From contig NZ_NNRL01000143.1 of NCBI RefSeq assembly GCF_002252505.1, positions 1 to 64,000 of the forward strand: a stretch of DNA of 64,000 nt. The letters are read 5' to 3'. This DNA comes from Brucella grignonensis (lineage in GTDB: Bacteria > Pseudomonadota > Alphaproteobacteria > Rhizobiales > Rhizobiaceae). Shown here piece by piece: positions 38,164 through 57,294 of the stretch (position 1 is the stretch's first letter; every line of letters starts with the position of its first letter). The notes beneath the pieces were generated by a model, which was not told where the DNA came from, made no database searches, and saw nothing but the letters and a program-made list of their open reading frames with translations. The position numbers and the translations under genes are program-made.

Positions 38164-38170
38164 TGAGCAC

Positions 38171-38811: not shown

Positions 38812-41185
38812 CATCGCGATCGTCAAGAGCCGGGAGCTCGAACCGGAGACCTTCATTCCTTACACTCGCCACGTCGATGAAAGGATCATCGCGCTCGATT
38901 CGCGTGCAATGATGGTGATCATCGCTCTTGAGGGCGTATCTTTCGAAACAGCCGACACTCTTGACCTAAATGCACTCCATCGCGACCTCAACACGCTCTA
39001 CCGCAATGTCGCCGACGAACGGCTGGCGCTGTGGACGCATGTGATCCGGCGTCGCGATAACGAATATCCCGGCGGCGAATTTGCCAACGCCTTTTCGCGG
39101 ACGCTGAACGCAAAGTATCGCGACCGCATGATCGACGAGGATCTGTTTCGCAACGACCTTTATCTCAGCCTTGTCTGGCACCCTGGGCGCGATGCGACCG
39201 AGCGCGTGATGGCGTTCCTGTCAAAGCTCAGGAGGGCCCGCCGGCGAGAAATCGAACTCGATGAGGATGCGATCAAGCATCTTGACGATGCGATCATCGA
39301 CGTCACGGCCGGCCTCAAGCGGTTCGGCCCGCGCGTCCTCACCCTGCAGGAACGCGAAGGTATTATTTTTTCTGAACCTAGCGAAGTGCTGCATCAGCTT
39401 GTGGGTGGGCGCCGCGAGTCCGTTCCATTAACGGAGGGCCGCATCTCGTCTGCCATCTATTCGGATCGCATCATTGTCGGACGTGAGACAGTCGAAATCA
39501 GGCATGAGGGATCCAGCCGCTTTGCGGCTATGTTTGGCTTTAAGGAATATCCAGCCCGGACGCGGCCGGGCATGTTCGATGGGCTGCTGACCGTTCCATA
39601 CGAGTTGATCCTCACTCAAAGCTTTTCTTTCCTGTCGAAATCCGACGCTAAAACGGTGATGGGACGCAAACAAAACCAGATGGTGAGTGCCGGCGACAAA
39701 GCTGGGTCGCAGCTGGAAGAACTCGATGACGCGTTGGACGATCTGGAATCGAACCGCTTCGTGCTGGGCGATCATCATCTCACCCTGACTGTCTTCGCTG
39801 GATCAGTGAAGGAACTAACGGACAATCTCGCGAAGAGCCGGACGCATCTTACCAATGGCGGCGCGGTCGTCGCTCGCGAGGATCTCGGGCTTGAGGCGGC
39901 CTGGTGGGCGCAATTGCCGGGCAATTTCCGCTATCGCGTCAGATCCGGCGCGATCACATCGAAGAACTTCGCTGCCTTTTCTCCATACCATTCCTATCCG
40001 ACCGGCCAGAGAGACGGCAACGAATGGGGCCCAGCGGTTGCCATGCTTAAAACGGCATCGGGGTCGCCGCTCTATTTCAATCTGCATTATGGCGACCTCG
40101 GCAACACTTTCATCGGCGGGCCGTCCGGATCGGGCAAGACCGTCCTACTCAACTTCCTTCTGTCGCAGGGTGAGAAGTTCGACGCGCAAATTGTTTTCTT
40201 CGACAAGGATCGTGGCGCCGACCTCTTCGTGCGCGCCGCCGGTGGAACCTATCTGCCGCTGAAGAATGGTCGCCCGACAGGTTGCGCGCCTTTGAAGGGA
40301 ATGGAGCTAACGCCGGAGAACAAGGTGTTCCTGGCACAATGGGTAGCGAAGCTGGTGAACTCAAAAACACGCGATCTTTCCGTATCGGAAGTGCGCGACA
40401 TCGCCAACGCCATCGACGGATTGGCAGACCTGCCCGTCGAACGGCGCACCATCGGGGCGCTAAGGACGTTTCTTAACAACACCGACCCCGAGGGCATCGC
40501 CGCGCGACTGCGTCGCTGGGAGCGTGGCGGGCCACTTGGATGGGTGTTCGACAACGTCATTGAGGATGTTGGTCTTGGCGAACTCGGCGTAGACCATAGG
40601 TTCGTCGGCTATGACATGACCGACTTCCTCGACAATGAGGAGATCCGTACGCCGCTGATGGCCTATCTCTTCCACCGCGTCGAGCAGTTGATCGACGGTC
40701 GGAGGATCATCATCGTCATCGATGAGTTTTGGAAGGCGCTTGCAGACGAAGGTTTTCGTGACCTTGCCCAAAACAAGCTCAAGACCATCCGAAAGCAGAA
40801 TGGCCTCATGCTATTTGCGACGCAGAGCCCGCGGGACGCGATCAATTCTCCGATCGCGCACACCATCATTGAGCAGTGCCCAACGCAGGTATTCATGCCG
40901 AACTCACGCGGCAGCCGTAATGACTATGTCGACGGCTTCAAACTCACCGAGCGCGAATATGAATTGATTGCGCGCGATCTCTCCAATGAAAGTCGCCGCT
41001 TCATCGTCAAGCAGGGCCATAACAGCATCGTTGCCGAACTAAATCTCGGCGGCTTCGACGATGAGCTCGCCGTCCTCTCCGGCCGCACCGCCAATGTCGA
41101 ACTCGCTGACGCAATCAGGGCGCAGGCTGGCGAGGATCCGGAGGTCTGGCTTCCTCTCTTCCACCAACAACGGAGTGCAGGCTGA
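38783..41185 (+). CDS. virB4: VirB4 ATPase of the type IV secretion system
   Basis: 800 aa from ATG 38783. The N-terminal CagE/TrbE-VirB domain (SRELEPETFIPYTRHVD) is followed by an ATPase domain with Walker A GPSGSGKT and Walker B IIIVIDEFWKAL. It powers pilus assembly and substrate transfer. A TTG at 38804, eight bases after AAAGGGA, is a credible alternative start that would shorten the overlap with virB3. Full length. Confidence 0.93.
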   Translation: MTKGISALPSIAIVKSRELEPETFIPYTRHVDERIIALDSRAMMVIIALEGVSFETADTLDLNALHRDLNTLYRNVADERLALWTHVIRRRDNEYPGGEFANAFSRTLNAKYRDRMIDEDLFRNDLYLSLVWHPGRDATERVMAFLSKLRRARRREIELDEDAIKHLDDAIIDVTAGLKRFGPRVLTLQEREGIIFSEPSEVLHQLVGGRRESVPLTEGRISSAIYSDRIIVGRETVEIRHEGSSRFAAMFGFKEYPARTRPGMFDGLLTVPYELILTQSFSFLSKSDAKTVMGRKQNQMVSAGDKAGSQLEELDDALDDLESNRFVLGDHHLTLTVFAGSVKELTDNLAKSRTHLTNGGAVVAREDLGLEAAWWAQLPGNFRYRVRSGAITSKNFAAFSPYHSYPTGQRDGNEWGPAVAMLKTASGSPLYFNLHYGDLGNTFIGGPSGSGKTVLLNFLLSQGEKFDAQIVFFDKDRGADLFVRAAGGTYLPLKNGRPTGCAPLKGMELTPENKVFLAQWVAKLVNSKTRDLSVSEVRDIANAIDGLADLPVERRTIGALRTFLNNTDPEGIAARLRRWERGGPLGWVFDNVIEDVGLGELGVDHRFVGYDMTDFLDNEEIRTPLMAYLFHRVEQLIDGRRIIIVIDEFWKALADEGFRDLAQNKLKTIRKQNGLMLFATQSPRDAINSPIAHTIIEQCPTQVFMPNSRGSRNDYVDGFKLTEREYELIARDLSNESRRFIVKQGHNSIVAELNLGGFDDELAVLSGRTANVELADAIRAQAGEDPEVWLPLFHQQRSAG

Positions 41186-41880
41186 TGCGTATACGAAATT
41201 CTTTGATGGTCGCCACCATCCTTGCCTTATCGGCCAGCGCAGCCGGTGCCCAGGGGATACCCGTAAACGACCAGGCCGCGATCCTGAAACATATTGAGAG
41301 CATCGCCCAGCTGAAGTCGCAGCTAGATGCACTTAATCAGCAAATCACGCAAGCCGAGCAATTGTTCGGGTCGCTGAACAAGTTCACGAAGATGGCTGAT
41401 GTCGCCTCACTTCTGAACCAGCCAGAAATTCGCAAGGCATTGCCGCAGGACTTTGCGGCCATCGAAAGCCTGCTTAAGGGCAACGGCACGGGTGCGTTTG
41501 GCGATGCCGCCTCAAAATTCCTTGGAGACAACTCGACATATAAGACCTCTGCCAACGATTTCTACGCCCAGGAGCTGGCGCGCGTCCAGAATCGCAACGC
41601 CGGTCAGATGAGCCTCGGCCAACAAATTTACGATGCTGCCACGAAGCGTATCGACGGGATCGATCAGTTGCGTCAGCAGATATCCTCGGCGAGCGATGCC
41701 AAGGATATCGCCGATCTCCAGGCCCGCATTCAGGCCGAAAGTGCGTTCCTACAAACCGATCTCCTGCGCATGCAGGGTCTACAAATGGTTCAGCAAGCGC
41801 AAGCTCAGGTCGAGGATCAGCGTAAGGCAGAAGACTGGCGCAAGCGCATCGACACGATGAACACGGCGCTGTCGAAATGA
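41185..41880 (+). CDS. virB5: VirB5 minor pilin
   Basis: 231 aa. A signal peptide (cleavage after AGAQG, ~23) is followed by a helical protein with repeated Gln-rich heptads, as in VirB5, the pilus-tip component. ATG and the virB4 TGA share one base. Confidence 0.86.
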   Translation: MRIRNSLMVATILALSASAAGAQGIPVNDQAAILKHIESIAQLKSQLDALNQQITQAEQLFGSLNKFTKMADVASLLNQPEIRKALPQDFAAIESLLKGNGTGAFGDAASKFLGDNSTYKTSANDFYAQELARVQNRNAGQMSLGQQIYDAATKRIDGIDQLRQQISSASDAKDIADLQARIQAESAFLQTDLLRMQGLQMVQQAQAQVEDQRKAEDWRKRIDTMNTALSK

Positions 41881-42113
41881 AGCGCGTAGCGGCTCTCCTC
41901 CTGATGGCATTTCTGGCGGCGTGTTCCGAACCGCCGCCGTCTACCGTCATCACCGTCAGCGAGTTTCTCGCAGACGAGAGCCTACGCGCCGATCACGTGG
42001 GGAGATGCCGCGAGAACCCGGGCGCGCTGGGTCAGACGCCTATCTGCCGGAACGCCGAAGAAGCAGAGGGAAAGGCGCGGCTCGAGCGCATGAACAGGGC
42101 GCTGGGAGGATAG
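41877..42113 (+). CDS. EexN-type entry-exclusion lipoprotein
   Basis: 78 aa. The lipobox LAAC (13-16) is followed by VSEFLADESLR....CRENPGALGQTPICRNAEEA, which fits the EexN family: short lipoproteins between virB5 and virB6 that block redundant plasmid entry. The gene position is the standard one. Overlaps virB5 by four bases. Confidence 0.75.
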   Translation: MKRVAALLLMAFLAACSEPPPSTVITVSEFLADESLRADHVGRCRENPGALGQTPICRNAEEAEGKARLERMNRALGG

Positions 42114-42117
42114 CGCC

Positions 42118-43014
42118 ATGTATACCGTCTTCGACTTCCTCGATCGACAATTCACGACACCGCTGCAGAATTTCATCAGTTCCGGGACGAGCGGGATTAG
42201 CGCGTGGGTGGCAGGCCCGCTGACGGCGGCGTTGACGCTATACGTGATCCTATACGGATTTCTGATCCTGCGTGGATCTGTGCAGGAACCGATCATGGAG
42301 TTCGCTTTCCGGGCAATAAAGCTCGCCATCATCCTGATGCTGGTCAGGAACGCGAGCGAATACCAAACCTATGTGACGAACATTTTCTTCGAGACGCTGC
42401 CGAAGGAGATTTCGGAGGCGCTAAATACAGGAGGCGCTCCGAGCGCCTCGACTTTCGATAGTCTGCTCGATAAAGGTCAGAAATCTGCGAACGATATCTG
42501 GGCACAAGGTGCGTGGCCGGTCGATCCGCTGACCGGCTTTGCTGGTCTCGTAGTCATCGTGGTGACGTTTATCGTCGCCTCGATCGGATACGTGGTGTCG
42601 CTCTATGCGCGCGTCGCGCTCGCGATCATGCTCGCGATCGGACCGATTTTCATCGCGCTGGCGATGTTCCAGTCAACGCGCCGCTTCACCGAGTCATGGA
42701 TCGGGCAACTCGCAAATTTTGTAATATTGCAAGTGCTCGTCGTCGCGGTTGGCTCCCTGCTGGTCACCAGTTTCGCCACCATGTTCACGACGGTCGAGGC
42801 ATATAGCGACGTGCTGATGCGGCCGATCGCCGTTGGAGCCATCGGTCTGGCTTCCCTCTATGTCTTTTACCAGCTGCCAAGCATTGCCTCTGGGCTCGCA
42901 TCCGGGGGTGCCTCACTGACGTATGGCTACACCGCGGCGCGCGACGGGCACAACAACACCGTGGTCCGCACCATCGGCTGGGGCTGGGGGAAGCTGACCG
43001 GGAAGAAGGCCTGA
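42118..43014 (+). CDS. virB6: VirB6 polytopic inner-membrane protein
   Basis: 298 aa with five to six membrane helices and a central periplasmic loop (~95-140), as in VirB6/TrbL. It forms part of the inner-membrane channel. It starts four bases after the exclusion gene. Confidence 0.9.
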   Translation: MYTVFDFLDRQFTTPLQNFISSGTSGISAWVAGPLTAALTLYVILYGFLILRGSVQEPIMEFAFRAIKLAIILMLVRNASEYQTYVTNIFFETLPKEISEALNTGGAPSASTFDSLLDKGQKSANDIWAQGAWPVDPLTGFAGLVVIVVTFIVASIGYVVSLYARVALAIMLAIGPIFIALAMFQSTRRFTESWIGQLANFVILQVLVVAVGSLLVTSFATMFTTVEAYSDVLMRPIAVGAIGLASLYVFYQLPSIASGLASGGASLTYGYTAARDGHNNTVVRTIGWGWGKLTGKKA

Positions 43015-43041
43015 CGCCATGGCCAAATGGGGAGTTAAAGA

Positions 43042-43335
43042 TTGAATACAGCACGCATCACCACTCTGCTTGGCCTGCTACTTGTCGTCTCCGGCTGCGC
43101 CACGCTCAGCTATCCACTGCCCAAATGCGACGGTTATTCCAAACGGCCGCTCAATCGCTCAATGTGGGATTGGGATGCAAGCAAGACGGAGGCGGACAAG
43201 CAGCAGTCTTCGCTCAACGATGGAAGCAAGATCGTACTCGCATTCGCCGATCAGACGGTCGAGCCAACCGTCCATACCGCAGCTTTTGCCGGGTTCGATG
43301 AAGCGGCGTCCCATACCGCTTGCCAGGGGGGGTAA
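43042..43335 (+). CDS. virB7: VirB7-position outer-membrane lipoprotein
   Basis: 97 aa. The lipobox VSGC (16-19) gives a mature lipoprotein longer than Agrobacterium or Brucella VirB7. Called VirB7 from gene order between virB6 and virB8; the sequence itself is poorly conserved. It would anchor VirB9 to the outer membrane. Confidence 0.65.
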   Translation: MNTARITTLLGLLLVVSGCATLSYPLPKCDGYSKRPLNRSMWDWDASKTEADKQQSSLNDGSKIVLAFADQTVEPTVHTAAFAGFDEAASHTACQGG

Positions 43336-43340
43336 GGGGT

Positions 43341-44012
43341 ATGGTTACAACGGACAGCCTAAAGGATTATTTTGATAAGGCACGTCGCTTCGATCAGGAT
43401 CGAATGGTCTCTGCCGAGCGCTCGAAACGTCTGGCTTGGTTTGTTGCCGCCGTCGCCAGCGTGCTCGCTTGCGTGTCTGTCACTGCCGTCGTTGCGCTCA
43501 CACCACTGAAGACCGTCGAGCCCTTCGTCATTCGGGTGGATAACTCGACGGGCATTGTAGACGTTGTGTCGGCCATGTCGTTGGCGGCTGGCAGCTATGA
43601 TGAGGAAGTCACCAAATACTTCGCCGCGCGCTACGTGCGCGCCCGCGAGGGTTACGTATGGTCGGAGGCGGAGGAGAATTTCCGCACTGCATCTCTGATG
43701 TCGAATGCGGCGGAGCAGCAACGCTTCGCGGCCACCTATCGCGGTAGCAATCCTGAATCGCCGCAGAACATTTACGGTCGATCGGCGTCATCCCGCATCG
43801 GCATCAAGTCGATCTCGCTCATTAACAGCAATGTCGTTTCCGTTCGTTACACCCGGACGATCACGCGTGGTGAAGATATCCGCACCACGCATTGGGTGGC
43901 AACGATTACCTACACCTACGCCAATTCCCCGATTTCCTCCACCGACCGGTTGGTGAACCCTCTTGGGTTCGTGGTTAGCGAGTACCGGGCCGATCCGGAG
44001 GCTTTGAATTGA
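43341..44012 (+). CDS. virB8: VirB8 inner-membrane assembly factor
   Basis: 223 aa. One N-terminal membrane helix (~31-53) is followed by a periplasmic NTF2-like domain (TPLKTVEPFVIRVDNSTG, YVWSEAEENF, RYTRTITRGED). The ATG at 43341 follows TAAGGGGT; the in-frame upstream start lies within virB7. It overlaps virB9. Confidence 0.91.
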   Translation: MVTTDSLKDYFDKARRFDQDRMVSAERSKRLAWFVAAVASVLACVSVTAVVALTPLKTVEPFVIRVDNSTGIVDVVSAMSLAAGSYDEEVTKYFAARYVRAREGYVWSEAEENFRTASLMSNAAEQQRFAATYRGSNPESPQNIYGRSASSRIGIKSISLINSNVVSVRYTRTITRGEDIRTTHWVATITYTYANSPISSTDRLVNPLGFVVSEYRADPEALN

Positions 44013-44866
44013 CAGTACGCTCTCTCATCATGGCGATCGTAGTCACCGTCTTGACGCTAACGCCCGTACAAGCCCTCGAAATTCCTGCAAGCGCACAGCA
44101 GGACAACCGCGTGCGCTTCGTAAACTACCAACCCTACAACATTACACGGATTGTCGGCACAATCCGCTCCTCTGTGCAGGTCGAATTTGCTCCCGACGAA
44201 GAGATCGCTCACGTCGCGCTCGGCAACACCGTTGCTTGGGAAGTCGCTCCGGCTGGTCATATCCTGTTTCTGAAGCCACGCGAGAACCAACCGGCGACGA
44301 ACATTTCCGTAGTTACGACGCGGCGAGACGGCTCCAAGCGCAGCTATCAGATGGAACTAGTTGTGCGCGACGGCTCGGTGGACGCCGGGCAGAACACTTA
44401 TTTCTATGTGAAATACCGCTATCCGGCCGATGAAGCTGAGCGTCGGCGCCTGGAGGAAGAGGCCCGCAAGCGTGCGGCCGAGGCAGGTTATGCCGATCAG
44501 GTCCTCGGTATCCACGAGCAGTATGGGCCGCGAAACTGGCGTTATTCCGCCCAGGGCGGAGCGGCGATCGAACCGCAAGCCGTTTATGATAACGGCAAGG
44601 TTACAACGTTCTCATTTAGCGGCAATCAGGAAATGCCGGCGATCTATATTGAGAATTCAGACGGAACCGAGAGTCTTGTTCCGAAAACGGTGCAGGGCGA
44701 TCTCGTGCTCGTTCACGCGATCAGCCGCAAATTCATTTTGCGACGCGGCTCCGACACGCTTTGCATTTACAATGAAGCTTATTCGCCGGTCGGTGTGGAT
44801 CCGGGCACCAACACGACATCACCGTCGGTCGAGCGTGTGGTGAGGGTGCCGGCCGCTGGCCAGTAG
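44009..44866 (+). CDS. virB9: VirB9 outer-membrane core component
   Basis: 285 aa from a TTG start overlapping the virB8 TGA and preceded by GGAGG; an internal ATG at 44030 would cut the signal peptide. The mature protein contains RVRFVNYQPYNITRIVG and the C-terminal TFSFSGNQEMPAIYI block typical of VirB9/CagX. A Glu/Arg-rich coiled segment (~133-155) links its domains. Confidence 0.91.
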   Translation: MTVRSLIMAIVVTVLTLTPVQALEIPASAQQDNRVRFVNYQPYNITRIVGTIRSSVQVEFAPDEEIAHVALGNTVAWEVAPAGHILFLKPRENQPATNISVVTTRRDGSKRSYQMELVVRDGSVDAGQNTYFYVKYRYPADEAERRRLEEEARKRAAEAGYADQVLGIHEQYGPRNWRYSAQGGAAIEPQAVYDNGKVTTFSFSGNQEMPAIYIENSDGTESLVPKTVQGDLVLVHAISRKFILRRGSDTLCIYNEAYSPVGVDPGTNTTSPSVERVVRVPAAGQ

Positions 44867-44877
44867 GGGAGGGCCAA

Positions 44878-46050
44878 ATGGCAGAAAACACCGAAACAAA
44901 TATCCCCGGCGAGCGCGGCCAAACCGCAGCCGCCCGCAAGGTCGACAACAATCCCTTGCTCAAGCGTGGGGCCGTTGTCCTGGCTGTTGTCGCGTTCATG
45001 GGTTTTGCCATGTGGTCGATGCGACAGGCTCCGAAAGAGGACGTCGAACAGCCGGGATCCGGCGTAATCCGACAGAATACGGAGTTCGAGCCGGCGCGGG
45101 CAGAACCCGAACCAGTGGCGCTCCCCGTACCTGAGATCAAGCTGCCAACCCCTTCCGTGGAAACAAACGAAAAGCCCGCTGTAGACGAACTCCTCGAGGC
45201 TGCCAGGCGAGCGCCGGTGATGGCGTACGGCGGCGGCCAGACAGGCAACAATGCGCGGCCATCTGAAAATTCCGGCACGAATCCCGACCCCAATTTTCTT
45301 CCGGTCGACGGCCTGCTTGGGGCAGGGGGACAGGGCGAGAACGAGGATCAGCGGTTCAACCGCATGCTGAAGCCGACGGTTCTCGAGGGCTCCAAAGCGG
45401 GACATCTCGGCAATCGCAACTTCATCGTTGCCATGGGTACCTCTATCCCTTGTGCGCTCGAAACCGCGCTCTCTTCGGATCAGCCAGGCTTTACAAGTTG
45501 CGTGATCACCCGCGATGTTCTCTCCGACAACGGACGTGTGGTGTTGATGGAAAAAGGCACGCAAGTTGTTGGCGAGTATCGAGGGGGCCTACGCCGTGGC
45601 CAGAGCCGGCTGTTCGTCTTGTGGAATCGGGCCAAGACCCCAACCGGTGTCATCATCACTCTCGCCTCGCCGGCGACCGACGCGATCGGCCGCGCAGGCT
45701 TTGATGGTTATGTCGATACCCATTGGTGGGAGCGCTTCGGGAGCGCGCTGCTCTTATCTGTGGTCGGGGACGTGGCGACATACGCCGGTCAGGAGTTGCA
45801 GAGAAGCGATGTACAGGCGCAAGGAACGACGAGCGCCGGCAAGGACGCGGCGGCGATCGCCGTTGAGCAGTCAATCAACATTCCGCCGACGCTCACGAAA
45901 CATCAAGGCTCTCTGGTTTCAATATTTGTGGCCCGAGATCTAGATTTTTCGACGATTTATGGTCTTCGTGTAACTGAACCCCGCAATACGATCTACGATC
46001 GCGCGGTAATGGGCGATTTCTATCCGAAGTCTGACCTGGTGACGAAATAG
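44878..46050 (+). CDS. virB10: VirB10 energy-transducing core component
   Basis: 390 aa. A cytoplasmic N-terminus is followed by a membrane helix (~36-56), a Pro/Glu-rich periplasmic linker and a C-terminal TrbI-like domain (KAGHLGNRNFIVAMGTSIPC and GRAGFDGYVDTHWWERFG). It spans both membranes in the secretion core. Confidence 0.93.
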   Translation: MAENTETNIPGERGQTAAARKVDNNPLLKRGAVVLAVVAFMGFAMWSMRQAPKEDVEQPGSGVIRQNTEFEPARAEPEPVALPVPEIKLPTPSVETNEKPAVDELLEAARRAPVMAYGGGQTGNNARPSENSGTNPDPNFLPVDGLLGAGGQGENEDQRFNRMLKPTVLEGSKAGHLGNRNFIVAMGTSIPCALETALSSDQPGFTSCVITRDVLSDNGRVVLMEKGTQVVGEYRGGLRRGQSRLFVLWNRAKTPTGVIITLASPATDAIGRAGFDGYVDTHWWERFGSALLLSVVGDVATYAGQELQRSDVQAQGTTSAGKDAAAIAVEQSINIPPTLTKHQGSLVSIFVARDLDFSTIYGLRVTEPRNTIYDRAVMGDFYPKSDLVTK

Positions 46051-46058
46051 GACCGGGG

Positions 46059-47066
46059 ATGGCGGAAACCTCCGATTCCGGCGTCGTCCGCCAACTGCTT
46101 TTGCCGCTTGATCGCTTTTTGAAAGATGCGAGCCTCTACGAGGTCGTTATCAATCGACCAGGAGAGGTGCTGACAGAAGGGACGGCAGGCTGGCAGCGCC
46201 ACGAGCTGCCGGACCTTTCTTTTGACAAGTTGATGCGGTTGGCGCGGGCTGTAGCCAGCTTTTCTAACCAGGGCATTGATGAGACCCGCCCGCTGTTGTC
46301 TGCCACCCTCCCGGATGACGAACGTATCCAAATTGTCATCCCGCCGGCGACAACACGAGATACAGTTTCGATCACAATTCGAAAGCCGTCACTAGTATCG
46401 CTTTCGATGGCGGACATGGAGGAGGGAGGGCTTTTCGAGCGAGTGGTGGCCAGTGCCAATCAAAAAGCAGGCGAAGATCCGCTGCTGACGACTTACCGCA
46501 GCGGCCAGTATCGAGCTTTTCTCGAGGGGGCGGTGCTGGCGCGCAAGAACATTATCATCTCCGGCGCCACAGGGTCTGGCAAGACTACTCTCTCCAAGGC
46601 CCTGATCCAGCACATTCCACACGACGAACGCCTTATCAGCATAGAGGACACGCCCGAACTTACGATTCCACAGCCTAACCATGTCCGGCTGTTTTACTCC
46701 AAAGGCGGGCAGGGGTTAGCCAAGTTAGGTGTGAAAGACCTACTAGAATCGTGTCTGCGCATGCGCCCTGACCGAGTGCTGCTGCAGGAGCTACGCGATG
46801 GGACGGCCTTCTATTATATTCGAAACATCAACTCCGGACATCCCGGCTCAATAACTACTGTGCATGCGGAGTCACCGGAGCTTGCCTTTGAACAGCTAAC
46901 TCTTTTGGTAAAAGAGTCCGAAGGCGGGCACGATCTCGATCGCGCGGATATTCGGAATCTTCTAAGAATCTCAATTGATATAATCGTGCAATGCAAACGG
47001 GTTGGTGGTCGGTTTCGGGTGACGGAACTTTACTATTCTGATCACTGGCGGTCGGAAGGCGGGTAG
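46059..47066 (+). CDS. virB11: VirB11 hexameric ATPase
   Basis: 335 aa. Walker A GATGSGKTTL, Asp box ISIEDTPEL, Walker B MRPDRVLLQELRDG and a His box GHPGSITTVHAES are all present. It switches the secretion system between pilus assembly and DNA transfer. Last gene of the virB operon. Confidence 0.94.
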   Translation: MAETSDSGVVRQLLLPLDRFLKDASLYEVVINRPGEVLTEGTAGWQRHELPDLSFDKLMRLARAVASFSNQGIDETRPLLSATLPDDERIQIVIPPATTRDTVSITIRKPSLVSLSMADMEEGGLFERVVASANQKAGEDPLLTTYRSGQYRAFLEGAVLARKNIIISGATGSGKTTLSKALIQHIPHDERLISIEDTPELTIPQPNHVRLFYSKGGQGLAKLGVKDLLESCLRMRPDRVLLQELRDGTAFYYIRNINSGHPGSITTVHAESPELAFEQLTLLVKESEGGHDLDRADIRNLLRISIDIIVQCKRVGGRFRVTELYYSDHWRSEGG

Positions 47067-47198: not shown

Positions 47199-47340
47199 GC
47201 TTGCATCGCTCCGCTCGCTCTGATTGAAGGCGCGGTAATCCACCTCACGCACGGTGTGGGCCTCCTTGTTCGCAACAGGTCCATTGCAATCAGGCTTGCC
47301 ATTCCTGGGGAGGGATATCGTCGAGCAAGTGGAGGACTCG

Positions 47341-47715
47341 ATGAACTTTACGTGCGAAACATGCATAAAGCTGGAGAATGCCGAGACGGCAATCCGAAAA
47401 GCGTTTGGAAGCCTTCAGCCGCATTGCTGTGCCCAGACGCGGTCGGGACACGACTACGCGTTTGATTTTTGCTCCGCAAAGGCTGTTGTGCGCGCTGACT
47501 CACACATTTTATGGATTCGCATCGAAGCGGAAGAATTTATCATTGCTGTTGGTGCGAAAATTCTCATTCAATCTGAGATCGCTATCCATAGCAAAGATGT
47601 GCCAGAAAATTGGCTCTGGATCGAAGCGACCGATGATCCATTCGCTGCGATAACATCATTTGAAGGACAGGAAGGTTCGAGAGCCGCCGGTGGTTCATCG
47701 GTAACACCGGAGTAA
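47341..47715 (+). CDS. Hypothetical protein downstream of virB11
   Basis: 124 aa; family not recognised. It starts MNFTCETC with a CXXC pair and has further cysteines (Cys29, Cys30, Cys44), so metal binding is possible. ATG 47341 has GGAGG five bases upstream. Soluble, no signal peptide. The end of a virB cluster is a common place for transfer-accessory genes, but no function can be assigned. Confidence 0.6.
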   Translation: MNFTCETCIKLENAETAIRKAFGSLQPHCCAQTRSGHDYAFDFCSAKAVVRADSHILWIRIEAEEFIIAVGAKILIQSEIAIHSKDVPENWLWIEATDDPFAAITSFEGQEGSRAAGGSSVTPE

Positions 47716-47887
47716 CAAATCGGACTCACTACCTGCCACATTGGGACGGCATCTCGGTCATTCCGCAACTATGATCATTAGCCGCGATTTCCGGAGAGAT
47801 AGATGCCGACTCGCTCACGCTGATTGCTATGGATCAAAAAAATACCCTTTTCGTTTACTAATATCTGGGTTCCGATACATCTTGCGG

Positions 47888-49642
47888 TCAACGTTTGAGC
47901 GTCGGGGTCACATTTCCATGTTGAGTCTGGCTATGAGTTTGAACGTGCCGTCCGAGACCCTCCGTCTGTTTATGTATCCGCGACAGACTTGCGGCCTGGC
48001 CGGCAGACACATTGAGCGATTGCGCGATCTGCTTAAGATTGTCTCGCCTCAACGCAGTGCGGTCTGTAACGTCGAGGCGTCGTGATATTGAAGCGCTGAT
48101 CCGTTCCAATTCCCTCCGTAGCTCTGGCGTCGCGTTGAGCCGCATTGCCCGCTCATGTTCCGGGGCCGCCAGGACTTTCTCGAGACCTTCTGACGGCGCA
48201 CGGATTTCCTGCCGCTGACGATATTGTTCATCACGATGTTTTGTCTCCATCTGATACCGCTCGAAATCGACCGTTCGCCCGTAGTCCTCAAGAGCTGCGG
48301 CCAGTTGCGGCAGATGTGCTTTCGCCGCCTGCCGTTCGGGGCTTTCCGCGCGGAAGAAACCTTTGCCTTCGCCGGCGAGAGGCCCGAGTTTGCCACTGCG
48401 GGCATCCTCGCCTGCAATAGCCCCAGCCATCGGGCCATCGATGCGCTCGACCGTCGCCGAGACGGCGGCCGAGTTGCCATAGACCAGCATCGACAGTCGA
48501 TCGATTTCTGCCCGCTTCTCCGCCAACCGCGATGAATCCCTCAGCTTGACGACGATCTCGGCCTCACTCAGATCCGCCAGCTCGCGTCCGGGAATGAGGA
48601 CATCTCCGGGGCGGACCTGGCGATCAGGCTTCTCCCTATCTCGATCCGGGTCCGCGAGGGTCGGGATTCGTTCGGGTGCCTCTGCCATCGCGGGGGCCGG
48701 CACCATACCGACGCGCTGTTTTACGTCATGTGAACTTTTGACCGCGTCACCGGCTTCCGACCGCCGACGCTCCAACTGGAACCAGGCGAGGTCGTCGCGT
48801 GACTGACTTTTCACCTCGTCAATCAGGATAGATGGAGCGCGCCTGTCCTCCATGCGTTGAATCAACCGCGTCCAGATATGCGCGAACCGGTCAACCTCCT
48901 CACGGGTTAAGGGACGATTGCGCGTTTCGTCGAGCACCTGAGCTGCGATCGTGGCTGAGCGCCATCGCCCGTTGGCAAGCTGGTTGTCATAGACGGCCTC
49001 TCCGTCGGCCGACTGGATCACGACTCGGTCGGCGAGCTTGCGGCGCTCAATACGCTTGAGGCTTTCGGCCAGACCAGTGACAGCACCATCATGAACGGCA
49101 CGTGGCGGGATCCGCGCAGCCGCTCCGGCCTGGTGCAGTTCTTCAAACCGGTAATGGCATCCCTGCCAGCTGACACGTGGGCTGACGGCCAGAGCGCGCG
49201 CCTCGACGCGATAACCGGCGGATCGTCCAACCTTCATGATTTTCTCGACATTGTCCGGCGTCCGCATCGTCGTTTCGAATACAACGTGGACACGACGAGA
49301 GGTGGCGGCAGCAAGCAGCTTCTCGGTCCAGATCCCGGCATCGCCTTGCGTAAAGCGCGATGCCGTTACAGGATCGATACTCTGATGGGCGACAAAGCCG
49401 GGATGGTAGGACCGCAAATCGTCACCGACGATCCTTATGGCACCACCGGTCCGCTCCAGCTCGGTCTGGCTGGCGATCAAAAGTGCCGTCTTGCCAGAGC
49501 CCGGCTGGCCGCCCAGAACAATCAGGGTCGGGCAGTCGGCGGCGCGAATCTGATCGGGAAGATAGTCTGGCAGGATTTCCGTCCGGAAGACGCGTTCGTT
49601 CTCGGTCTCCGACAAGCGACCATTGGCAGCCTCCTCCGCCAT
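47888..49642 (-). CDS. Zeta-toxin domain fused to a BID-like secretion domain
   Basis: 584 aa. The N-terminal zeta/PezT-type kinase has Walker A GGQPGSGKT (44-52), GDDLRSYHP (73-81) and FETTMRTPDN; zeta toxins phosphorylate UDP-amino sugars and block wall synthesis. Residues ~350-480 (AEKRAEIDRLSMLVYGN, KLGPLAGEG, ESPERQAAKAHLP) parallel the BID-like repeats of the neighbouring TraA. BID domains are type IV secretion signals. It is the third gene of traA-small gene-toxin. Delivery into recipients is inferred. Confidence 0.75.
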   Translation of the reverse strand: MAEEAANGRLSETENERVFRTEILPDYLPDQIRAADCPTLIVLGGQPGSGKTALLIASQTELERTGGAIRIVGDDLRSYHPGFVAHQSIDPVTASRFTQGDAGIWTEKLLAAATSRRVHVVFETTMRTPDNVEKIMKVGRSAGYRVEARALAVSPRVSWQGCHYRFEELHQAGAAARIPPRAVHDGAVTGLAESLKRIERRKLADRVVIQSADGEAVYDNQLANGRWRSATIAAQVLDETRNRPLTREEVDRFAHIWTRLIQRMEDRRAPSILIDEVKSQSRDDLAWFQLERRRSEAGDAVKSSHDVKQRVGMVPAPAMAEAPERIPTLADPDRDREKPDRQVRPGDVLIPGRELADLSEAEIVVKLRDSSRLAEKRAEIDRLSMLVYGNSAAVSATVERIDGPMAGAIAGEDARSGKLGPLAGEGKGFFRAESPERQAAKAHLPQLAAALEDYGRTVDFERYQMETKHRDEQYRQRQEIRAPSEGLEKVLAAPEHERAMRLNATPELRRELERISASISRRLDVTDRTALRRDNLKQIAQSLNVSAGQAASLSRIHKQTEGLGRHVQTHSQTQHGNVTPTLKR

Positions 49643-49645
49643 AAC

Positions 49646-49915
49646 TCAAAGCTCCCGCCAGAATTGCGCCGGGTTTTTGATCCTCGGTCCCCATTCGGCG
49701 ATCACCGCCTCGACGTGATCGAGATCGTCGACGCGAACGCTGTTCTGGACGGCGAGAAGCGTGCGCCGCTTGGCACGCATTGCTTCCGCGCCGGCTGGAT
49801 CCTCCGCCTCAATGGCGGCGACCCGCTCCGAGACCAGCCCCCGCGCCTGGTTCATGATTTCGATGGCAAGCTCGGTCCGCACGATTGCGTCGAGAGCGGT
49901 TGTCTGTCCGGCCAT
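49646..49915 (-). CDS. Small protein between traA and the zeta toxin; antitoxin candidate
   Basis: 89 aa, charged and helical, no recognised family. It lies 16 bases after traA and three bases before the zeta toxin, the position and size of an epsilon-type antitoxin. The zeta-epsilon family uses a small helical antitoxin that covers the nucleotide site. The assignment is positional only. Confidence 0.6.
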   Translation of the reverse strand: MAGQTTALDAIVRTELAIEIMNQARGLVSERVAAIEAEDPAGAEAMRAKRRTLLAVQNSVRVDDLDHVEAVIAEWGPRIKNPAQFWREL

Positions 49916-49931
49916 TTGAATATCCTTTCTG

Positions 49932-52900
49932 CTACCTGGTGATGCCCTTGACCTGATTGAGCGCCCGCATCTGACGCTCTGCGATAATGTCTTGCGCCCT
50001 GTCGGCGCGAACGGCGTTCTGCAGGACCTTCAGACGGGGTTGCATCGCCTCGAAAACCTTGCGCTGCGCGGCGGGAATGCGGCTGACGACATCACCCTGT
50101 TCGCGGCCGATGGCGTTGGGGCCGAACCGGTTGTCGAGCGCCTTGCTGACAACTGCGAATTCCGCCCTGACCTTCGCGTCGAGAGCGCGGACAAGTCGCG
50201 TAATGTCTTTAGGGGATTTCGCGACGGCAGCCGTCAAGCGGGTCAGATCGGCCTCTGCCTGCGGCGACAGGCCGGGCACCGGCACGCTCATCCGCTCCCG
50301 ATCCGCAAAAACGGCAGTCTTTTCGGCGTCAAACGCACCACGCCAAGCCCTCCCCATTGAAACCACCTGAGCCGCTACGCTTTCCACGGCCGAGAGCGCT
50401 GCTTTGCGTTCCTTCCCTGAGGCCAGCAGCCGATCCATGACCCGCTCGGAGCCACGCAGCGGGCCATAGGCGGCGGGTTCATTGGTGAGAGCGCGGGCGA
50501 TCCGCTCCGGCTCGACACCCCTGACAACAAGATCCTCGATCATTGCAAGCGAGGCCGCTGGATCGCGCCATACCCGCTGCACCGCCTCGGCGAGGACCGC
50601 GCGTTGCTGCTTGTAACGAGGCACTTCAATCGCCCGCATTTTAGCCTCCTCCTCGACGGAGGATTTGAACAAGGTGACGGCGGCAAGCATCGGCAATGCC
50701 GGTGGCTTCGACATTTCCAGGGTCGCGGCCGGATCGTAGGCCGCCGGCGCGACTGTCCGCGAAGGATCGCGCTTCTCGGCCAGATATAGTTGTTCGTTGA
50801 ACCGCCGAACGGCGGCAAACAATGTCGTCAGTTCCACGCGCTTGCCTTCCGACACCCCTTCCGCCATGCGATCAACCATCTGCTTCTCGGCGTACAGATC
50901 GGCCTTATCGGTAAACGCGCTCCAGCCGAACCGTGCGGTCAGGGCTTCACCGACCGCCTTCATTTCCTGCGAGAGGGATCGTTCCGCGGCAGCGAAAGCG
51001 AAGGCGGTCTTGTAGGCGCCCTCGCCGCCTTGCTCGCGCACGGCTTCGATTTCCGTGAGCCGCGCCATAGCATGTGGAGACAGCGCCGGAACCGAAAGGG
51101 ACATGGCGGCCCGGCGAGCATGTTCGCGGTTGGCAAAAAGGGTCTGATCGCGTTTGAAACTCTCGGCGTGGCCGCGCACGAGCGGCACAAGATCTGCGAC
51201 AGCGGCGACAGCCTCTGCCCGTTCCTGACGCGCAGCCTGTCCATCGACCAGGCTGGCGCTTCCGCGCACAGCGCCGAGCATCGCGGGGGCACGCCCGAGA
51301 TCTTCACCCAAACGACGTGGCTCGACATCAAAGGCGGATGCTTGCCGATTCAGTTGGTCGAGTGCGGCGGCCGGATTGCGATAGATGCGCTCCATTACCG
51401 GAAGAAGGATCGTCTCACGCTCCTTCCACCGGGCCGACGCCACGTGCTCGATGCGCGCGTCTTCATCCAGCGAACGGACAAAACTTTCCTGTGGCGCGAT
51501 GAGATATCGCATTTCGGCGCAAATCGGCGCTTGCTGTGCCGGCTGAACCGGGGCTGCCGCTTTGGATGCCGAAACCACCGGCTCCGCCCTGACCGCCTGA
51601 TCGTCATAGGAGACGCTGCGCTCCTTCTCGATCGCAAGTCCGAGCGCAATGCTCGCGCGCTCCCAGAGCCGCGCCAAGCGATCGCGCTGCGCGCCAATCC
51701 ACGACAGCCGCCGCTCCATCCCCGCTTCCATCCCGGCAGCAAGTTCGATGGCGTGATCCATGTTGCGGCGACGGGCGAAATCGACAACCTGTGCCTGGTA
51801 GCCTGCTTCGGATTCGTAATCGAGCGTCGTGCTCTTGGCGCCCGAACGCGACAGACGTTCGACCAACTGTTTGAACAGTTCCGGCCGATGGCTTTCCTGC
51901 TCGATGCGCTGCTGGCGGGCTTCGGCTGTCTCAACTAGGTTTGCGGTCCAGACATTGCGCTGCACCTCGCGTTCCTCGAACCGCTTGGCGCCCGTTTCGG
52001 GATCGACGACAGGAACCTCTACCTTGACGGTTTCAACACCGTCCTTGCGCAGGGTAACGGTATCGCCTTCCAAAACGCCGCCCTTTTCCAGCGCCTTCGG
52101 CAGGCTGACGCCCCAGACACGATGCACCGCTCCATCGTCGGTCTTAACATCCGCATAGGGGCTCTTTTTCGCATCCTCGTCATCAGGCCGGAATTTGGCT
52201 TCGCCGGTTTCGATCAGTTCGCCGGTTACACCGGCGGCGTGGTCGGCACGCGGCGCCCTGCCCAATTCGTCGCGCGGCGCAAAATCCTGATGCGCCATAT
52301 AGAGATCGGCCCGATCGCGATGGCGTGACATCGCCACATAGGCGAGATGCTGATCCATCATTCCGGTGGCGAGAACGAAAGTGCGGTCGACCGTCGCGCC
52401 CTGTGACTTGTGCACCGTGGCGGCATAACCATGGTCGATATTGCGATAGGTGTCCTGCCCGAACGTGATCTCGCGGCCCGCGTCCAACTTGACAGTCAAC
52501 AGAGTTTCGCCGCGCGCGGTCGTAGTCGAGATGACGGTGCCCAGCATCCCGTTCTTGACATGCTGCACGGCGAGATGCTCGGCTCGCTTCTCGAAGAACC
52601 GGGCATTTTCGAGGAAGATCAGGCGGTCACCGACTGCGAACTGGCGCGCGCCGCGTTCGGTCTGGAACGCGCGCTCCTCGCCAAGCGAACCCTGTCTTGC
52701 CATAACGGCGCGCAACGCTTCATTGAGCCTCCGCACATCGTCATTGGTCTGCGCTAGGACGAGCAGCTCGGAACCGCTGAGTTTGCGGTTTTCGCTTTCG
52801 GCGCGCGCACGGTATTCCTCCCGAGCCTGCCCCCAATCCGCGACGATCTGCTCGATCAGCGCTTCACGGGTTTCAAGCTGAAGGATGCGGCCGTGCTGTG

Positions 52901-54605: not shown

Positions 54606-54826
54606 ACGATCCGAGACCTCTCCCAAGCATGTCGCGTCAGCGACGTATATTGCGCCCTCGAACAGATCGGGCCGTAGGACCGATGCCGCTTCTCGGGATG
54701 CGCCCTTCCGGGCGCAGACCAAAAATGAGCCTCACGGCTCGACGCAAACTATCATCTTTTACTATGCGTTTCTACACGGTATAATGGCCGCGCAAAAGAA
54801 GTGCGACCGGAAGGAAAAGTGAGCAA
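54606..54826. other. traA-traC intergenic region with oriT
   Basis: GTCGC-GTCA-GCGAC (54631-54644) is an inverted repeat followed by ATATTGCGCCCT (54647-54658), matching the nic region of RSF1010 and Ti-plasmid type oriT (core TGCGCCCT). Relaxase and traCDG diverge from it, as on Ti plasmids. Divergent promoters must also lie here. Confidence 0.8.
54699..54716. repeat. Palindrome carrying a second nic-like core
   Basis: TGCGCCC (54699-54705), loop TTCC, GGGCGCA (54710-54716). The left arm and loop repeat the TGCGCCCT core of oriT. Could be a protein-binding or termination hairpin of the transfer origin. Confidence 0.5.
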
Positions 54827-55051
54827 ATGCGTGCTAGATCATCGATTTCAGAGATTGACGCCCAGATTGAGAAACTACGCGAAAAACGCCGTGGAATTCT
54901 GGCGAAGGCCAATGAACGCTTTGCACGCGCCGCGGCAAAGGCGGGGCTGGCGGAACTAGAAATATCCGACAACGAACTCGACGCCATCTTCGAGGAGATC
55001 GCCGCGCGATTTCGCAAAAGCGGCAAGGGGCCTTCAGCGGCATCTGCTTAA
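54827..55051 (+). CDS. traC: Conjugal transfer protein TraC
   Basis: 74 aa small basic/acidic helical protein (SEIDAQIEKLREKRRGILAKA) matching rhizobial TraC, an accessory relaxosome protein. First of traC-traD-traG, directly right of oriT. GGAAAAGTGAG precedes the ATG. Confidence 0.8.
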   Translation: MRARSSISEIDAQIEKLREKRRGILAKANERFARAAAKAGLAELEISDNELDAIFEEIAARFRKSGKGPSAASA

Positions 55052-55076: not shown

Positions 55077-55388
55077 ATGGAGAGAAGGCGGCGGCAGGCA
55101 ATGACCGAAGACCGAAAAAAGGACGCCCGCGAAAAGATCACGCTCGGCGGGCTGGTGGTGAAGGCCGGTCTGCGGCAGGCCGACCGCGCTTTCTTGCTGG
55201 GTGTGCTTCTGGAGGCTGCGACCGTTCGAGTGGGATCACCCGAGCACCATCGCCTGAAGGCCAAAGGCGGCATGGCCTTCCAGCGCGATCGGCTGGACGC
55301 GGCGGAAGCCGGACCGCCTGTCGGCGATCATTCTGAAAACTCCACGGGCGACCAAGCGCCAACGAGAGGCGCCGGACATGGCAACTAA
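55077..55388 (+). CDS. traD: Conjugal transfer protein TraD
   Basis: 103 aa. KKDAREKITLGGLVVKAGLRQADRAFLLGVLLEAA is the conserved core of rhizobial TraD. An ATG at 55101 (MTEDRKK) is a likely alternative start. It overlaps traG by 11 bases. The tail after residue ~60 is low-complexity. Confidence 0.78.
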   Translation: MERRRRQAMTEDRKKDAREKITLGGLVVKAGLRQADRAFLLGVLLEAATVRVGSPEHHRLKAKGGMAFQRDRLDAAEAGPPVGDHSENSTGDQAPTRGAGHGN

Positions 55389-57294
55389 GACCATACTGAA
55401 GCCAGCGCTATTGTGGGCAATCCTGCCTGTCGCTGTCACCGCGATCACGCTGGTGATCACATCGTACAGATGGCAAGGGATGGCGGCGGCGTTCTCGACG
55501 GGTAATGCATATTGGTTCCTGCGCTCCGCGCCGGTTGCCAACCTGCTCTTTGGTCCGATTGCGGGGCTGATCACCGTCCTCGCCCTGCCGATGCATCGCC
55601 GGCGGCCAGTGGCTTTTGCGAACCTGATCTGCTTTCTGGGCGTCGCCAGCTTTTACGCTCTGCGCGAGTATGCGCGCCTGTCCCCATCCGTAGAGAGCGG
55701 CGCGGTGACGTGGGACGAAGTCCTGTCTTATCTCGACTTCTTCGCCGTCATTGCCGCAGCGGGCGGTTTCGTCATCGTTGCAGTTTCGGCACGGGTATCG
55801 GTCGTGGTGTCCGATCCGGTGAGGCGTGCGAAGCGCGGAACCTTTGGTGACGCAGATTGGCTCACCATGTCAGCGGCCGGAAAGCTGTTTCCGCCAGACG
55901 GCGAGATCGTCGTCGGTGAGCGCTACCGTGTCGACAAGGAGACGGTCCGCGACGTGCCATTCGACCCAACCGACGGGGAAACGTGGGGCAGCGGCGGGAC
56001 AGTGCCGTTACTCACCTACAAGCAGGATTTCGATTCCACACATATGTTGTTCTTTGCTGGATCAGGCGGGTTCAAGACGACGAGCAATGTCGTTCCGACG
56101 GCGCTGCGTTACACCGGGCCGTTGATCTGCCTCGACCCATCGACGGAGGTAGCGCCGATGGTCGTCGAGCATCGGACCCGCAAGCTCGGCCGGGAATGCA
56201 TGGTGCTCGATCCCGCAAACCCCGTCACAGGTTTCAACGTCCTCGATTGGATCGAAACCTCGAAACACAAGGAAGAGGATATCGTCGCCGTGGCGCATAT
56301 GCTGCTGTCGGAAAGCGCGCGTTTCGAATCCTCGACCGGCAGTTATTTCCAGAACCAGGCACACAACCTCTTGACGGGTTTACTTGCCCACGTCGTGCTG
56401 TCCCCGGAGTATGCCGGGCGGCGATCGTTGCGCAGTTTGCGCCAGATCGTCTCGGAGCCGGAGCCTTCGGTTCTCGCCATGCTGCGCGACATACAGGCGA
56501 CATCGCAGTCCGCCTTCATCCGCGAGACGCTGGGCGTTTTCACCAACATGACCGAGCAGACATTCTCCGGGGTCTATTCGACGGCATCGAAGGATACGCA
56601 ATGGCTGTCGCTTGATGATTACGCCGCACTGGTCTGCGGTCGTTCGTTCAAATCGAGCGACATCGTTGCCGGGGGAAAGGACGTGTTCCTCAATATCCCG
56701 GCGGCGATCTTGCGCTCCTATCCAGGGATCGGGCGGGTGATTATCGGCTCGCTGATCAACGCAATGACGCAGGCCGACGGCGCGTTCAAGCGTCGCGCCC
56801 TGTTCATGCTCGATGAAGTGGATTTGCTCGGCTACATGCGGGTGCTCGAGGAGGCGCGCGACCGTGGGCGCAAGTACGGGATCACGCTGATGCTGATGTA
56901 CCAGTCCGTCGGCCAGCTCGAACGGCATTTTGGCAAGGACGGCGCGACGTCGTGGATCGATGGCTGCGCTTTTGCCTCCTATGCTGCGATCAAGGCCCTG
57001 GAAACGGCGCGCAACGTTTCGGCGCAATGCGGCGAGATGACCGTCGAGGTCGAGGGCAAATCCCGCAATGTCGGTTGGAGCAATTCCAACAGCGGCAATC
57101 GCAAATCGGAAAGTCTCAATCTGCAGCGTAGGCCGCTGATCATGCCGCATGAGATCACGCAGCAGATGCGCAAGGACGAGCAGATCATCATCGTGCAGGG
57201 ACACGATCCGATCCGCTGCGGGCGAGCAATCTACTTCCGGAGAAAGGACATGGATGCCAAGGCTAACCCAAACAGGTTCGTCAAGTCGAGCTGA
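55378..57294 (+). CDS. traG: Type IV coupling protein TraG (VirD4 family)
   Basis: 638 aa. Three N-terminal membrane helices precede a VirD4-type ATPase: Walker A-like AGSGGFKTTS, the EDIVAVAHML region, Walker B LFMLDEVDLLG and LMYQSVGQLERHFG. It recruits the TraA-DNA complex to the VirB channel. Intact. Confidence 0.93.
   Translation: MATKTILKPALLWAILPVAVTAITLVITSYRWQGMAAAFSTGNAYWFLRSAPVANLLFGPIAGLITVLALPMHRRRPVAFANLICFLGVASFYALREYARLSPSVESGAVTWDEVLSYLDFFAVIAAAGGFVIVAVSARVSVVVSDPVRRAKRGTFGDADWLTMSAAGKLFPPDGEIVVGERYRVDKETVRDVPFDPTDGETWGSGGTVPLLTYKQDFDSTHMLFFAGSGGFKTTSNVVPTALRYTGPLICLDPSTEVAPMVVEHRTRKLGRECMVLDPANPVTGFNVLDWIETSKHKEEDIVAVAHMLLSESARFESSTGSYFQNQAHNLLTGLLAHVVLSPEYAGRRSLRSLRQIVSEPEPSVLAMLRDIQATSQSAFIRETLGVFTNMTEQTFSGVYSTASKDTQWLSLDDYAALVCGRSFKSSDIVAGGKDVFLNIPAAILRSYPGIGRVIIGSLINAMTQADGAFKRRALFMLDEVDLLGYMRVLEEARDRGRKYGITLMLMYQSVGQLERHFGKDGATSWIDGCAFASYAAIKALETARNVSAQCGEMTVEVEGKSRNVGWSNSNSGNRKSESLNLQRRPLIMPHEITQQMRKDEQIIIVQGHDPIRCGRAIYFRRKDMDAKANPNRFVKSS

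What the first reader, a model, noticed from the sequence alone, without database searches (positions are those of the whole stretch)
47888..49642. Zeta toxin with a BID-like C-terminus encoded right after the relaxase
The C-terminal segment shares spacing and motifs (R..EKRAE...VYGN, LGPLAG, ER.AAKAHL) with the two repeats at the end of TraA. BID domains are secretion signals for VirB-type systems, best known from Bartonella effectors. This would be a toxin shipped with the plasmid into recipients, acting on competitors or enforcing retention.
Basis: partly seen in the sequence, partly recalled or inferred. Interest (0 to 1): 0.78.

Follow-up and report, generated by a model that had tools for sequence, protein, structure and literature searches.

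The report
Plasmid toxin tagged for conjugative delivery
A conjugative plasmid encodes a probable cell-wall-poisoning (zeta) toxin carrying the same kind of export tag as the plasmid's own transfer protein, next to its likely antidote, so the poison is probably injected into the recipient together with the plasmid; the design was described in 2017-2019 and this is a further, well-preserved example.

Summary
The ORF at 47888-49642 (-) is a 584-aa zeta/PezT kinase with a C-terminal BID domain over the Pfam cut-off, in a traA - small gene - toxin array beside traG and a VirB operon. "PezT/Zeta-BID" is in print (Harms 2017; Wagner 2019): a new member of a known kind.

Corrections and additions. 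(1) Direct similarity to the two TraA repeats is at chance level; BID plus tail instead matches a solved Bartonella effector (E 8e-14), so it was not recently copied from TraA. (2) The 89-aa gene before the toxin is the likely antitoxin: no Pfam or NCBIfam family, beside a zeta toxin in 22 of 22 plasmid hits, relatives before 26 of 54 stand-alone zeta toxins. Covariation with zeta beyond TraA is 0.60-0.63 within length classes but only 0.23 overall without one outlier. (3) The window copy keeps its active site. One relative (Agrobacterium pAt-Tul002) has lost most of it but keeps an open frame and a recognisable BID; two more have a changed P-loop residue.

The parts
47888..49642 (-). zeta-BID toxin gene, 584 aa
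48980..49537 (-). zeta/PezT kinase domain (residues 36-221); P-loop K51/T52, D74, R77, R165 and the UDP-GlcNAc-contact equivalents E107, T125, R127, T128 present
   Evidence: residue roles from PMC4938570 and PMC3062530 (passages read)
48275..48547 (-). BID domain (residues 366-456), proposed T4SS signal
47891..48274 (-). post-BID tail (residues 457-584), Bep-like to residue 559; last 40 residues 5 K/R against 1 D/E
49646..49915 (-). 89-aa gene, likely antitoxin; no Pfam or NCBIfam match; stop codon 3 bases before the toxin's ATG; 16 bases after traA
49932..54605 (-). traA, Ti-type MobQ relaxase (ORF opens at 54722; start at 54605 inferred from TIGR02768 beginning at residue 40)
50358..50624 (-). 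TraA second BID domain
51186..51425 (-). TraA first BID domain
54627..54672 (.). strongly conserved block in the traC-traA interval, many columns invariant in the 8 sequences aligned; likely oriT
   Evidence: location matches the oriT placement in Harms 2017 (passage); function not tested
54827..55051 (+). traC-like ORF, 74 aa
   Evidence: named by position relative to annotated relatives
55077..55388 (+). traD-like ORF, about 103 aa
   Evidence: named by position
55378..57294 (+). traG coupling protein (TIGR02767), proposed receptor of the BID signals
37489..47066 (+). VirB-type T4SS operon (VirB1-like transglycosylase to VirB11-like ATPase)
   Evidence: the two end genes by Pfam; VirB genes annotated in the aligned relatives; genes between not tested one by one
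47254..47715 (+). small gene facing the toxin's 3' end, similar to genes in the same place in 7 of 10 relatives tested (DUF2218 match below cut-off in two relatives, none in the window copy); role unknown

Best explanation
This is an antitoxin/zeta-BID toxin pair next to the relaxase gene of a conjugative plasmid with a RepC replication protein. The donor makes TraA, the antitoxin and the toxin from one transcript (inferred from spacing). The antitoxin holds the kinase silent in the donor (inferred). The BID domain and basic tail dock the toxin on TraG and it is passed through the VirB channel with the TraA-bound strand (inferred by analogy with VbhT, whose transfer was shown by Cre reporter). 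In the recipient the freed zeta domain phosphorylates the peptidoglycan precursor UDP-GlcNAc (inferred from conserved residues). A recipient that establishes the plasmid makes the antitoxin and survives; one that loses or destroys it is inhibited. Addiction would therefore begin at the moment of mating, before any plasmid gene is expressed.
For: Shown here: zeta and BID domains over curated cut-offs and matched to solved structures. The P-loop and substrate-contact residues are present in the window copy (roles from PMC4938570 and PMC3062530, passages). A TraA-like ORF lies upstream in 38 of 40 relatives' loci examined; of the two misses, L022 holds only 358 bases upstream and L045 is a zeta toxin without BID. 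The partner gene is beside a zeta toxin in 22 of 22 plasmid hits. Its distances follow zeta more than BID within each length class (partial r given TraA 0.60 vs 0.23 in 23 long forms; 0.63 vs 0.02 in 8 short forms). No sigma-70-like site was found on the coding strand in 47100-50400; the traA-antitoxin gap is 16 bases. Literature (passages): VbhT FIC-BID is translocated during conjugation; a Cre fusion to the tBID of pAt TraA is translocated by a Bartonella VirB system; PezT/Zeta-BID are named as probable substrates. The pAtC58 TraA tail is 49.8% identical to the window's.
Against: No translocation or toxicity data were found for this kind of protein. The toxin BID and the BIDs of its own TraA are so divergent that one coupling protein recognising both is an assumption, although the 2019 review argues for relaxed specificity. 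Three of 36 complete members have a changed P-loop, and one traA-linked locus (L031) has a zeta frame with no BID found, which simple delivered addiction would not favour. Antitoxin activity rests on position and covariation; the overall partial correlation with zeta falls from 0.79 to 0.23 when the outlier L009 is left out; a profile search of the PDB found nothing significant.
Confidence: 0.7

Rival explanations
1. An ordinary, cell-internal toxin-antitoxin pair for plasmid maintenance in the donor line; the BID domain is a leftover or has another use and the protein is not exported.
For: Toxin and antitoxin are adjacent, as in classical pairs; stand-alone zeta toxins with related small genes exist; one traA-linked zeta frame (L031) shows no BID.
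Against: 36 of the 40 traA-type loci (window plus 39) have one intact frame with zeta and BID; of the other four, L018 and L034 are frame-broken, L043 runs off its contig and L031 lacks BID. In the kinase-dead member the BID branch is close to that of the window copy (0.44 vs 0.34) while the zeta branch is far longer (1.12 vs 0.14). The gene sits in the transfer region.
Confidence: 0.13
2. An antibacterial weapon: the toxin is injected into neighbours irrespective of DNA transfer and kills competitors that lack the plasmid.
For: Same anatomy; T4SSs that kill bacteria are known (PMC6536674, seen in the search listing only). The antitoxin profile matched only the window's own genome among 397 of the order, so most neighbours would be unprotected.
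Against: Conjugation into a killed cell is wasteful; the antitoxin gene travels on the same plasmid; the gene is next to the relaxase gene rather than in an effector array (arguments, not tests).
Confidence: 0.1
3. The delivered protein mainly serves plasmid establishment through its BID/tail or a kinase-independent activity, and toxicity is secondary or dispensable.
For: Three of ten short-form members have a changed P-loop, one of them lacking most catalytic positions, with frame and BID kept.
Against: 33 of 36 complete members keep an intact P-loop motif, 26 of 26 among long forms. In most ordinary comparisons zeta is about as conserved as BID or more so (window vs L004 76 vs 62%; L004 vs L021, L023, L025 and L026 84-91 vs 77-91%).
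Confidence: 0.14

Closest known systems
PezT/Zeta-BID (tBID-alpha) proteins of Alphaproteobacteria (Harms 2017 PMC5675462, Wagner 2019 PMC6509941; passages read)
   Same: Zeta/PezT kinase plus terminal BID, beside a relaxase gene and a VirB/TraG-type conjugation system, described as a TA module; BID reported closer to Beps than to relaxase BIDs
   Different: Nothing essential; another plasmid host. Added here: a partner-gene family without Pfam or NCBIfam entry, two length classes, members with a lost or changed P-loop
VbhT/VbhA of Bartonella schoenbuchensis pVbh (Harms 2017; passages)
   Same: TA toxin fused to BID, module downstream of the T4SS genes and next to the dtr genes; translocation shown by Cre reporter
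   Different: FIC toxin instead of a kinase; its BID is reported virtually identical to that of its TraA, unlike here
PezT (2p5t) and zeta (1gvn) toxins
   Same: Kinase domain, E 3e-21 and 8e-14, active-site residues
   Different: No BID; no epsilon/PezA family hit for the 89-aa protein
AvrRxo1:Arc1 (PMC4938570; passages)
   Same: Secreted zeta-like kinase with a small antitoxin; reported as frequently inactivated in some species
   Different: Type III effector; antitoxin gene downstream; other substrate-site residues
Zeta/BID gene on Rhizobiaceae linear plasmids with a Dot/Icm T4SS (PMC13293297; passages)
   Same: Homology to zeta toxins and BID effectors, next to T4SS genes
   Different: Dot/Icm-type system; the authors could not identify a relaxase gene on the plasmids they studied

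Membership tests
Zeta/PezT toxin | Zeta_toxin domain PF06414 over cut-off | tested here: met
   151.9 bits vs 22.3
Zeta/PezT toxin | P-loop Lys/Thr, catalytic Asp, UDP-GlcNAc-contact residues | tested here: met
   alignment and table; four of five contact positions of zeta kept (the equivalent of T128 is not), roles from PMC4938570 (passage)
Zeta/PezT toxin | kinase activity and growth inhibition | not testable with these tools
   needs bench
BID-domain T4SS substrate (tBID-alpha) | PF17841 over cut-off at the C-terminal side | tested here: met
   41.2 vs 29.5 bits; NF033856 46 vs 45
BID-domain T4SS substrate (tBID-alpha) | four-helix bundle with hook | not testable with these tools
   structure prediction switched off; sequence match to solved BIDs 4nps, 4yk2, 4yk1 only
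BID-domain T4SS substrate (tBID-alpha) | positively charged C-terminal tail | tested here: met
   last 40 residues 5 K/R, 1 D/E; modest
BID-domain T4SS substrate (tBID-alpha) | gene linked to relaxase, coupling protein and VirB genes | tested here: met
BID-domain T4SS substrate (tBID-alpha) | translocation through the T4SS | not testable with these tools
   none
epsilon/PezA antitoxin (for the 89-aa protein) | sequence similarity to epsilon or PezA | tested here: not met
   no Pfam or NCBIfam hit for the window protein; profile vs PDB best E 0.12. A shared fold is not excluded
cognate zeta antitoxin (functional class) | small gene directly before the toxin, found with it, covarying with it | tested here: met
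   covariation within classes only moderate and weak overall without L009
BID copied from the neighbouring relaxase (as VbhT) | near identity of toxin BID and TraA BID | tested here: not met

The most novel reading that the evidence does not exclude
In this family what selection keeps is delivery of the BID-bearing protein, not only the kinase. On pAt-Tul002, and perhaps in two more plasmids with a changed P-loop, the toxin has died and (on pAt-Tul002) its antitoxin has diverged with it, but the protein is still encoded in frame and its BID stays recognisable and little more diverged than that of the window copy. The injected protein would then have a kinase-independent job in the recipient, for example helping TraA or establishment, or acting as a decoy against active zeta-BID of rival plasmids.
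Probability: 0.15. Interest if true: 0.7.

Novelty: new member of a known kind. Interest (0 to 1): 0.42.

Why it matters
It supports the view that conjugative plasmids ship toxins as well as DNA, which would let plasmid addiction start before the plasmid expresses any gene and even if the recipient cuts the incoming DNA (idea of Harms 2017). The window copy is a good test case: intact kinase site, a defined small partner gene, compact arrangement. The naturally kinase-dead relative allows the delivery role and the toxic role to be separated. The Bep-like BID bears on where Bartonella's host-targeted effectors got their signal.

Tried and rejected
Rejected: origin of the toxin's BID from its own TraA (pairwise at chance; weak profile match; the TraA BIDs show no match to solved Beps at E 1, where the toxin gives 8e-14). 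Rejected: the extra ~235 aa in long-form relatives as another BID (hhalign probability below 1% against all three BID profiles); it stays unidentified (the only unexplained Pfam hit in several of the 16 members is a weak BLACT_WH match in 5, position not shown). Rejected: the 89-aa protein as a recognisable epsilon/PezA. Weakened on checking: covariation of the 89-aa protein with zeta; given TraA it is 0.79 over 32 loci but 0.23 over 31 without L009, and 0.60 and 0.63 within the two length classes. Because of this and of the BID rates I lowered the main confidence from a drafted 0.72 to 0.70 and the novel case from 0.17 to 0.15.

Other BID fusions: in 397 genomes of the order, 24 have a BID match at E 0.001 or better, 20 over cut-off. 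I fetched 16 regions from 15 of the 23 other genomes and read ORF lengths and first residues: relaxase-like N-termini or relaxase-length ORFs, one relaxase-like fragment at a contig start, and three ORFs of 204-221 aa with sub-cut-off matches. No toxin fusion other than the window's was recognised, but these were not run through Pfam, and 8 genomes, among them G164 with 8 BID matches, were not fetched. Closer relatives of the Tul002 copy: none above about 47% in the plasmid collection.

Rows dropped before counts: of the traA-type loci L018 (frame broken), L031 (no BID found), L034 (split frame) and L043 (contig end); also L050 (broken) and the zeta toxins without BID (L010, L045). That leaves 36 complete toxins, of which 32 have a full-length TraA and entered the distance analysis. 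Many plasmid and species records are near duplicates (e.g. L006, L028, L030; L022-L024), so counts are not independent events. One search kept the best 80 of 366 zeta relatives. E-values were computed for 1000 sequences although 19948 ORFs were searched; multiply by about 20.

Full report
What is there. On the minus strand the order is traA (49932-54605), a gene of 89 codons (49646-49915) and a toxin gene of 584 codons (47888-49642). The gaps are 16 and 3 bases, and no sigma-70-like site was found on that strand in 47100-50400, so one transcript is likely (inference). On the other side of a strongly conserved block (54627-54672, 8 sequences aligned) lie traC- and traD-like ORFs and traG; oriT lies in that interval in related plasmids (Harms 2017, passage). 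A VirB operon ends at 47066, and a RepC replication protein (30201-31850) and a Tn3-family transposase (33300-36290) lie further left. The window is part of a 169-contig assembly. The best-covering plasmids over the transfer region are two S. meliloti records (89% of the query covered at 81.6%).

The toxin. Pfam gives Zeta_toxin at residues 36-221 and BID at 366-456, both over cut-off. Against solved structures the protein matches PezT and zeta with its N-terminal part and a Bartonella effector with residues 322-559. By that alignment and the table, the equivalents of zeta K46, T47, D67, K70 (as Arg) and R158 are present, and of the UDP-GlcNAc contacts E100, T118, R120 and T121; the equivalent of T128 is not kept. 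Residue roles are from PMC4938570 and PMC3062530 (passages). In PezT, changing the Asp abolishes toxicity (PMC3062530, passage). I therefore predict an active UDP-GlcNAc kinase; this was not tested.

The signal. Pairwise comparison of the two C-termini is not above shuffled sequence, and profile comparison is weak, although the two TraA BIDs are clearly related to each other (99%). The TraA BIDs show no match to solved Bartonella proteins at E 1, whereas the toxin gives 8e-14. This agrees with the 2019 review, which puts toxin BIDs (tBID-alpha) nearer to Bartonella effectors than to relaxase BIDs (passage). The C-terminus of the window's TraA is 49.8% identical over 99% to that of pAtC58; the review says a Cre fusion to the tBID of pAt TraA was translocated.

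The partner gene. The 89-aa protein has no Pfam or NCBIfam family. In plasmids its 22 hits are all beside a zeta toxin: 21 of BID type by the extent of the match (one, L018, with a broken frame) and one (Lichenicola) without BID. A profile of the family finds a small ORF just before the toxin's open frame in 26 of 54 stand-alone zeta loci, among them sphingomonads, Burkholderiales, pseudomonads and Hazenella (a Gram-positive, recalled); in 5 of these the zeta domain starts some 500-700 bases further on in the frame. 28 of 54 had no hit. E-values run from 5e-3 to 7e-9 for 1000 sequences, about 20 times more for the 19948 ORFs really searched; no locus had a second hit. Several loci are near duplicates. 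Over 32 loci its distances correlate with zeta (r 0.94), BID (0.85) and TraA (0.84); given TraA, 0.79 for zeta and 0.41 for BID. Much of this comes from L009: without it the partial values are 0.23 and 0.20. Within the long forms they are 0.60 and 0.23 (23 loci) and within the short forms without L009 0.63 and 0.02 (8 loci). I take it as the cognate antitoxin, mainly on position and constancy. In 397 genomes of the order only the window's own has it.

The family. 36 complete zeta-BID proteins fall into a short form (10, 584-590 aa, including the window) and a long form (26, 820-831 aa) with an unidentified insert. A TraA-like ORF lies upstream in 38 of 40 relatives' loci, some of them cut by contig ends or frame breaks; the exceptions are a contig end (L022) and a zeta toxin without BID (L045). 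One traA-linked locus, L031, has a zeta frame but no BID. 20 plasmid records cover at least 80% of the toxin and a 21st (Neorhizobium) covers 78% with a broken frame; 320 plasmid records match the BID-bearing TraA tail, so the toxin is an occasional passenger of this relaxase type.

Dead kinases. On A. tumefaciens Tul002 pAt (L009), 13 of 19 examined active-site and conserved positions differ, including the P-loop lysine, although these positions are identical in 34 or 35 of the other 35. Against the window, L004 and L023, the relaxase core of TraA there is 88-90% identical, but zeta is 40-43%, the antitoxin 39-40% and BID plus tail 56-57% (window vs L004: 90, 76, 80 and 62%). The zeta branch is 1.12 (a lower bound, since the midpoint root fell on it) against 0.14 for the window copy; the BID branch is 0.44 against 0.34. 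Both BID branches are longer than those of the other short forms (0.00-0.18), so the BID of L009 is not slow, only not accelerated like its zeta. With that many changes a neutral model expects 6.6-6.9 stop codons; none is seen (fraction of simulations with none 0.0005-0.0011), and the zeta part has no insertion or deletion relative to L004. The model is crude, and part of the divergence may predate the loss or reflect replacement by a distant allele. Two further short-form copies have a changed P-loop lysine (L021) or threonine (L026) with the rest conserved; draft errors cannot be excluded. The parallel drift of antitoxin and kinase fits their being partners; the retention of frame and BID suggests that delivery of the protein may itself be useful. 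This rests mainly on one plasmid.

Mechanism and status. Best reading: an injected toxin with its antidote gene travelling on the same plasmid, so that addiction starts at mating (confidence 0.70). Domains, gene order, partner constancy and intact active site are shown by sequence; expression, docking on TraG, passage, kinase activity and neutralisation are inferred. [quoted passage not shown] My searches showed one later mention of a zeta/BID gene (PMC13293297, passages); a 2025 review mentions VbhT and does not contain the term BID (PMC12548467, passages). In the listings and passages I saw there was no experiment on a zeta-BID protein; other listed papers were mostly not opened, and only open-licence PubMed Central papers are held.

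Noticed in passing
L009:9001-10770 (CP048491.1, A. tumefaciens Tul002 pAt): Zeta-BID gene with the kinase active site largely lost but the frame and BID kept; its antitoxin has diverged in step.
   Followed up: yes
L021:7001-8752 and L026:7001-8761: Two otherwise conserved zeta-BID genes with a changed P-loop residue.
   Followed up: partly
L031 (Shinella sp. UYSO24), ORF 6920-9073: traA-linked zeta frame of the long type with no BID found in the locus.
   Followed up: no
L058, L083: Burkholderiales zeta toxins with a C-terminal KfrB domain (PF18790) over cut-off.
   Followed up: no
L100:4859-9076 (Nonomuraea): Zeta domain in a 1406-aa open frame with an N-terminal WXG100-like domain over cut-off, suggesting another export route.
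   Followed up: no
L097:6971-8797 (Streptomyces): Protein with two zeta stretches.
   Followed up: no
L047, L048 (Variovorax): Zeta ORFs of 1087 and 1158 aa with a long unassigned C-terminal extension; L047 has a glycine-zipper match below cut-off.
   Followed up: no
window 47254-47715 and the same place in L004, L006-L008, L012, L014, L017: Conserved small gene facing the toxin's 3' end; similar in 7 of 10 relatives tested; DUF2218 below cut-off in two relatives.
   Followed up: partly
L004:3912-8351: The S. meliloti pMl1 traA frame ends about 370 bases before the small gene, shorter than its relatives, so part of its second BID may be lost.
   Followed up: no
window 32553-36290: Tn3-family resolvase and transposase between repC and the VirB operon.
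   Followed up: no
long-form zeta-BID proteins, e.g. L006:8989-11463: Conserved ~235-aa insert between zeta and BID without a recognised family.
   Followed up: partly
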